Positions 6,162-6,454 of a stretch of 64,000 nt of DNA are shown in pieces. The notes beneath the pieces are model-generated. The model saw only the letters and a program-made list of their open reading frames with translations, ran no database searches and was not told the origin of the DNA. Source of the stretch: Thermoanaerobaculia bacterium (GTDB taxonomy: Bacteria > Acidobacteriota > Thermoanaerobaculia > Multivoradales > Multivoraceae). The translations under genes were made by a program, and so were the position numbers. The stretch is from NCBI GenBank assembly GCA_022826745.1, contig JAJDUI010000023.1, positions 1 through 64,000 on the forward strand. The letters are read 5' to 3'. The first letter of the stretch is position 1; the number at the start of each line of letters is the position of its first letter.

Positions 6162-6181
6162 GAGGTAATGACGATTACCTC
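6162..6181. promoter_or_regulatory. Dyad GAGGTAAT-GACG-ATTACCTC (site 1)
   Basis: 8-bp perfect arms around a 4-bp core; contains the 12-mer TAATGACGATTA. Confidence 0.7.
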
Positions 6182-6341
6182 CATCCCTGTGGTGCAGGAA
6201 TCGGCCAAAACGGCACGATTCGACCGCCGAGAAAACCCTGGGCGTCCCGGGAACGCACGTTTCCGGCCCGGTACGGCCTCGGTTCGACCCGAAACGGCCC
6301 CTCAGAGCTCCGCTCGCGCCGCGTCGCGGGCTGGTGGGGGG

Positions 6342-6377
6342 TTGACAGCCGCTAGAACTTGGGGATAATCGTCATTA
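6342..6377 (+). promoter_or_regulatory. Near-consensus sigma-70 promoter TTGACA-N16-GATAAT overlapping site 2 (TAATCGTCATTA)
   Basis: TTGACA 6342-6347, 16-nt spacer, GATAAT 6364-6369; TAATCGTCATTA 6366-6377 is the reverse complement of the 12-mer in site 1. Confidence 0.65.
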
Positions 6378-6454
6378 TATGATGCACCATCAACTCGAAT
6401 GCCCCACTGCCTTCCGGAGCAGGCGCGCCTTGATCAACCGCTTGCCGCAGCCCC

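What the first reader, a model, noticed from the sequence alone, without database searches (positions are those of the whole stretch)
6162..6384. Possible invertible promoter between a secreted M23/Ig-like protein and a tyrosine recombinase gene
Seen: TAATGACGATTA (6166-6177) and its exact reverse complement TAATCGTCATTA (6366-6377) lie about 200 bp apart, AT-rich islands in a GC-rich genome, in the divergent intergenic region between the M23 gene (-) and the tyrosine recombinase (+). A near-consensus promoter TTGACA-N16-GATAAT (6342-6369) lies inside the segment, with its -10 box running into the right site. The sequence currently points the promoter at the recombinase. If recombination between the 12-mers inverted the segment, the same -35/-10 would be rebuilt at the left site facing the M23 gene, with a leader of roughly 30-40 nt before a good SD (AGGGGAGGT) and the TTG start at 6133. 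Established: fimS-type and Bacteroides invertible promoters are flipped by tyrosine recombinases encoded nearby and control surface proteins. Inference: this may be a phase-variation switch for the secreted peptidase. Caveat: each 12-mer is itself a dyad (TAAT-N4-ATTA), so these could be two operators for a regulator instead.
Basis: partly seen in the sequence, partly recalled or inferred. Interest (0 to 1): 0.85.

Follow-up and report, generated by a model that had tools for sequence, protein, structure and literature searches.

The report
Recombinase flanked by its own switch
In a genus of Acidobacteriota that includes sponge symbionts, a Cre-like DNA-cutting enzyme sits beside a pair of matching inverted sites that bracket the enzyme's own promoter, so one flip would silence the enzyme and turn on a neighbouring secreted peptidase; the pairing of the sites is well supported, but no flipped copy has been seen.

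Summary
TAATGACGATTA/TAATCGTCATTA lie at 6166-6177 and 6366-6377 and are the only copies (up to 1 mismatch) in the 4.39-Mb genome. They bracket a segment holding an 11/12 sigma-70 promoter facing the recombinase. Congeneric genomes bear on the operator-or-crossover-site question. In seven loci of four other genomes, a left and a right site sit at the same places. The 8-bp core differs between loci (ATGACGAT, AATGCGAT, ATTGCCAT, AATACCAT, ACGGCAAA) but is the same, or nearly so, within each pair. Such pairwise covariation is expected of recombinase crossover sites, not operators. The left site is always 31-34 nt from the start codon of the divergent secreted-protein gene, leaving no room for another promoter. 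Flipping in silico moves a 10-11/12 promoter from recombinase to peptidase. The recombinase's closest solved relative is phage P1 Cre, with all six catalytic residues present. Against: every locus has the promoter facing the recombinase, and no peptidase-facing copy exists in 73 genomes of the order. Frequent 50:50 inversion is therefore unlikely, and inversion itself is unproven.

The parts
6166..6177 (+). Left site, TA-ATGACGAT-TA; 8-bp core 6168-6175, arms GAGGTA / TACCTC perfectly inverted
6366..6377 (-). Right site, inverted copy of the left; 8-bp core 6368-6375; overlaps the -10 box
6176..6367 (.). Putative invertible segment (192 bp between the cores; 208 bp core edge to core edge)
   Evidence: geometry; inversion itself is inferred
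6342..6369 (+). Promoter TTGACA-N16-GATAAT, 11/12, facing the recombinase; the last two -10 bases lie in the right core
   Evidence: conserved in all loci with an intact right site
6202..6214 (+). CGGCCAAAACGGC, motif CGGCCARAAYGGC present in the segment of every related locus whose segment is intact; role unknown
   Evidence: not enriched genome-wide over its reversed control
6131..6148 (-). Shine-Dalgarno (6140-6148) and conserved TTG start (6133-6131) of the secreted peptidase gene, 34 nt from the left core
6079..6110 (.). Perfect 16-bp tandem duplication CAGGATGAACAGAGTT x2 that frameshifts the signal peptide; a relative (G004) has one copy
3724..6075 (-). ORF of secreted He_PIG / PPC / peptidase M23 protein (783 aa from the internal ATG)
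2510..3724 (-). 404-aa protein with signal peptide, no Pfam match, start overlapping the M23 stop; relatives follow the peptidase gene in other loci
6455..7384 (+). Cre-like tyrosine recombinase, 309 aa; R153, K181, H254, R257, W280, Y289

Best explanation
The two sites are the crossover sites of the adjacent Cre-like recombinase: short inverted arms around an 8-bp core. The segment between them is a promoter cassette that can be in one of two orientations. As assembled, the promoter drives the recombinase and the peptidase operon has no promoter. Recombination between the two inverted cores would flip the segment, rebuild the same -35/-10 pair at the left site about 34 nt upstream of the peptidase start, and leave the recombinase without a -35. 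The two outputs would then be mutually exclusive and the recombinase would switch itself off on flipping. Shown: site pair, covariation of cores, fixed spacing, promoter geometry, enzyme family. Inferred: that the enzyme acts at these sites, that inversion happens, and that it controls the peptidase. Since all assembled loci are in the recombinase-on state, inversion is probably rare, conditional or strongly selected against.
For: Left and right cores match their own partner and not those of other loci. Longest exact match is 10-12 nt on the diagonal against 3-8 off it, with windows fixed from the start codon and from the -35; the true pairing is the best of all 120 pairings, 54 against 45 for the next (same result by another score). 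Five different cores occur. Left core to secreted-gene start codon is 31-34 nt in seven loci, and core-to-core distance 177-220. In-silico inversion takes the peptidase from 0-8/12 to 10-11/12 and the recombinase from 10-11/12 to 6-8/12. The sites are not a regulon. Closest solved relative is Cre by profile (E 5e-23) and by fold (top 32 matches are Cre or its derivatives; model pLDDT 88), with the catalytic set conserved. A mismatched core in G012:C149b goes with a decayed recombinase.
Against: All loci with a right site point the promoter at the recombinase, and a pattern that recognises all seven simulated flipped loci finds nothing in 73 genomes. No reads could be examined. Individual inverted repeats are only slightly better than chance when taken alone. 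Cores differ by one base in G012:C76 and G012:C149b and by two in G012:C149a. The arms are short and only partly symmetrical. Cre in vitro does not strictly require identical spacers (PMC1479339), so identity is suggestive rather than diagnostic.
Confidence: 0.6

Rival explanations
1. The sites are binding sites at which the recombinase, or another regulator, represses the recombinase promoter by bridging the two copies into a loop. No strand exchange occurs and the peptidase gene is silent or driven by an unrecognised promoter.
For: The right site overlaps the -10 box, the usual place for an operator. Each site is a dyad. All loci are in one orientation.
Against: A dimeric repressor has no need for the non-palindromic core to be the same in both copies, yet the core changes from locus to locus and stays matched within a pair. 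Only two copies exist in the genome. The left site is 31-34 nt from a start codon, where a -10 would be, with no -35 behind it.
Confidence: 0.2
2. The pair and the recombinase are the remains of a small mobile or cassette-exchange module. The sites serve insertion or exchange of the secreted-protein gene rather than promoter inversion.
For: The module lies at several chromosomal places, next to carB, next to a membrane protein gene, and others. The body of the secreted protein changes after a shared start and first codons. Decayed copies are common.
Against: The core orientation is inverted in every complete pair, which gives inversion and not excision. Homology breaks inside the signal peptide, not at a site. 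No third copy of the core site exists in the own genome.
Confidence: 0.15
3. Chance: an AT-rich promoter and an AT-rich patch that happen to look alike.
For: Taken alone, the window's pair scores 13/14 against a shuffled maximum of 12.
Against: Same arrangement with different matched cores in other loci.
Confidence: 0.02

Closest known systems
fimS / hyxS / ipuS invertible promoter elements of E. coli (tyrosine recombinases FimB, FimE, FimX, IpuA, IpuB)
   Same: Short inverted repeats (7 bp in ipuS, 9 in fimS) around a few hundred bp with a promoter, next to a tyrosine recombinase gene, controlling a surface or secreted protein (PMC6083910).
   Different: There the flipping promoter serves the target gene (in ipuS inversion also trims the end of one recombinase); here the single promoter found is the recombinase's own. 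The enzyme here is closest to Cre, and inversion is demonstrated for fimS and ipuS but not here.
Phage P1 Cre / loxP
   Same: Closest solved relative over almost the full length, all six catalytic residues, 8-bp core between inverted arms.
   Different: About 25% identity; arms are shorter and less symmetrical than the 13-bp loxP arms (loxP from general knowledge); chromosomal and paired with a secreted peptidase gene.
XerC/XerD and dif
   Same: Tyrosine recombinases; TAA-core-TTA at the core edges resembles dif (recalled from general knowledge).
   Different: Scores of 38-41 bits are far below the curated XerC/XerD cut-offs of 330-335; two inverted sites beside the gene, not one chromosome-dimer site.
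Invertons of gut bacteria
   Same: Invertible promoters controlling surface products (abstracts of PMC10939037 and PMC11892184).
   Different: Different phylum; here orientation heterogeneity has not been observed.

Membership tests
Invertible promoter (inverton) flipped by an adjacent tyrosine recombinase | Inverted repeats flanking a promoter between or beside genes | tested here: met
Invertible promoter (inverton) flipped by an adjacent tyrosine recombinase | Inversion would rebuild a promoter for the other gene | tested here: met
   in silico, all eight measured loci
Invertible promoter (inverton) flipped by an adjacent tyrosine recombinase | Both orientations occur in nature | tested here: not met
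   only the recombinase-facing orientation in all loci; none flipped in 73 genomes; these are consensus assemblies, one per species
Invertible promoter (inverton) flipped by an adjacent tyrosine recombinase | The adjacent recombinase performs the inversion | not testable with these tools
   needs reads or a recombination assay
Cre-type tyrosine recombinase | Catalytic R, K, H, R, W, Y in order | tested here: met
   R153, K181, H254, R257, W280, Y289
Cre-type tyrosine recombinase | Closest to Cre among solved structures by sequence profile and fold | tested here: met
Cre-type tyrosine recombinase | Site of 13-bp inverted arms around an 8-bp core | tested here: inconclusive
   8-bp core fits; arm symmetry only about 4-7 bp
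XerC/XerD | Passes curated family score | tested here: not met
   38-41 bits against cut-offs of 330-335
Operator of a regulon | Copies upstream of several unrelated genes | tested here: not met
   two copies only, up to 1 mismatch, in 4.39 Mb

The most novel reading that the evidence does not exclude
A self-extinguishing commitment switch: a Cre-like recombinase whose only promoter lies inside the segment it inverts. One flip silences the enzyme, turns on a secreted peptidase operon and nearly locks that state. Groups of loci have drifted to their own matched cores, giving a natural set of possibly orthogonal lox-like pairs, and the peptidase bodies downstream of the constant start are exchanged between species.
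Probability: 0.35. Interest if true: 0.75.

Novelty: new variant of a known kind. Interest (0 to 1): 0.6.

Why it matters
If it works as drawn, it is a phase switch in uncultured Acidobacteriota of a genus that includes sponge symbionts, in which the recombinase and its target are mutually exclusive outputs of one flipping promoter, a design with built-in memory. The locus-specific matched cores would be a natural experiment on core identity in Cre-like recombination and a possible source of orthogonal recombinase-site pairs. It would also suggest how such bacteria vary secreted peptidases. It is directly testable with existing metagenome reads.

Tried and rejected
Regulon operator: rejected by copy number. 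Chance: rejected by covariation. Search for flipped copies: none in 73 genomes of the order; the 33 viral-contig matches to the same pattern were not examined further and are taken as chance in a collection of 2.9 million contigs. Relatives of the recombinase in viral contigs: none; phages and plasmids: only distant partial matches. The CGGCCARAAYGGC motif as a marker of further segments: not enriched over its control. More distant recombinases (28-50% identity): no convincing inverted pair upstream. Chloroflexota search: nothing, and without a positive control. First structure model with 7 sequences was poor (pLDDT 58) and was replaced by one with 50 (pLDDT 88). The organism name of the window's genome was not available; relatives are Acidobacteriota MAGs, one named Candidatus Multivorans thiocomprendens; that they come from sponges is read from isolate names and general knowledge, and no paper in the library held that name.

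Full report
What is in the sequence. They are the only two copies, allowing one mismatch, in the 4.39-Mb assembly. The one sigma-70-like promoter of the region, TTGACA-N16-GATAAT, faces the recombinase and its -10 box runs into the right site. On the left, the conserved Shine-Dalgarno and TTG start of the secreted protein lie 34 nt from the left core.

Relatives bear on operator versus crossover site. Close relatives of the recombinase (roughly 64-92% identity, some truncated) occur within the same genus and not in the other 131 genomes searched in the class at the cut-off used. Those with enough upstream DNA show TTGACA, a 16-17 nt gap, a -10 box and the right site at the same place, and most show a left site 177-220 nt away. 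The core differs between groups of loci: ATGACGAT in the window and G012:C76, AATGCGAT in G009, ATTGCCAT in G017, AATACCAT in G016:C163, ACGGCAAA in G012:C24 and C149. Within each locus the two cores agree, exactly in the window, G009, G017, G016:C163 and G012:C24, and with one or two mismatches in G012:C76, C149b and C149a. With windows fixed by independent landmarks, the start codon on one side and the -35 on the other, the longest own-pair match is 10-12 nt and the cross-pair match 3-8; the true pairing beats all other 119. This is what a recombinase that needs matching strands at crossover would leave behind, either by selection or by homogenisation through exchange. A caution: Cre in vitro tolerates unlike spacers (PMC1479339).

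The enzyme. The 309-aa protein has the full catalytic set (R153, K181, H254, R257, W280, Y289). All 17 matching solved sequences are Cre or its engineered derivatives (best E 5e-23), and the 32 best fold matches are too (model of pLDDT 88). It falls far below the XerC/XerD cut-offs.

The geometry of the switch. In seven loci the left core is 31-34 nt from the secreted gene's start codon, leaving no room for a separate promoter between them; in the assembled orientation no good -35 stands behind it. Flipping the segment in silico gives the secreted gene a promoter of 10-11/12 and leaves the recombinase with 6-8/12 at best. The partner is a secreted protein, usually with PPC domains and a peptidase domain: M23 in the window, G009 and G016:C163, a zincin with a sub-threshold match to M35 in G017. 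A 397-458 aa protein with a signal peptide follows it in several loci, and relatives of the window's 404-aa protein are found in seven of the loci compared.

What speaks against active inversion. Every locus has the promoter facing the recombinase. A pattern that recognises all seven simulated flipped loci finds none in 73 genomes of the order. Assemblies give one consensus per species, and the loci are not independent, but an even mixture is unlikely. A switch in which the enzyme silences itself should collect in the flipped state if flipping were efficient, so flipping must be rare, conditional or costly. A reading with no strand exchange, such as autorepression by looping, stays possible at about 0.2.

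State of the locus in this genome. A perfect 16-bp tandem duplication at 6079-6110 breaks the signal peptide frame. Read with one copy the start would give LKRLRDALTLFILLMAGVPSALTA, and the relic in G004 has one copy and reads through a similar signal-peptide sequence. Flipped, the window's locus would therefore make a truncated product unless the internal ATG is used or the duplication collapses.

Evolution of the module. It sits at several chromosomal places. Between G000 and G012:C76 the recombinase, the switch and the first codons are shared and the rest of the secreted protein's N-terminal part is different. Recombinase-truncated relics occur in G001, G005, G015 and G018, and G004 keeps a peptidase relic without the recombinase. 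One locus, G012:C23, has a deletion from the left core into the segment.

Verdict. Observation confirmed; interpretation partly supported. Best filed as a candidate invertible promoter of a new layout run by a Cre-like recombinase: works-like claim 0.6, membership in the inverton class not established because both orientations were not found.

Noticed in passing
6079-6110: Perfect 16-bp tandem duplication that frameshifts the signal peptide of the secreted peptidase; a relative has one copy. Could be a broken gene or a second, slippage-type switch.
   Followed up: partly
G012:C76, G009, G016:C163, G017 compared with the window: Secreted-protein bodies differ after a shared start and first few codons, as if coding bodies were exchanged downstream of a constant expression start.
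   Followed up: partly
6202-6214: CGGCCARAAYGGC is kept in the segment of every related locus with an intact segment, at variable distance from both sites; role unknown.
   Followed up: partly
2510-3724: Signal-peptide protein without Pfam match that overlaps the stop of the peptidase gene; relatives follow the peptidase gene in other loci.
   Followed up: partly
G012:C23 (L021, about 150 nt upstream of the recombinase): Left core fused to the interior of the segment, a deletion product next to the site.
   Followed up: no
G016:C92 end, G012:C24 end, G012:C23 start: Three contigs end inside or at the switch, as mixed orientations or repeats would cause.
   Followed up: no
13203-13388: Three copies of a 62-bp tandem repeat at the end of a dehydrogenase-like gene.
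   Followed up: no
G000:C19:9365-13531 and 47961-49652: Two further clusters of PPC / Ig-like sequence related to the window's peptidase protein, one with an in-frame TGA.
   Followed up: no
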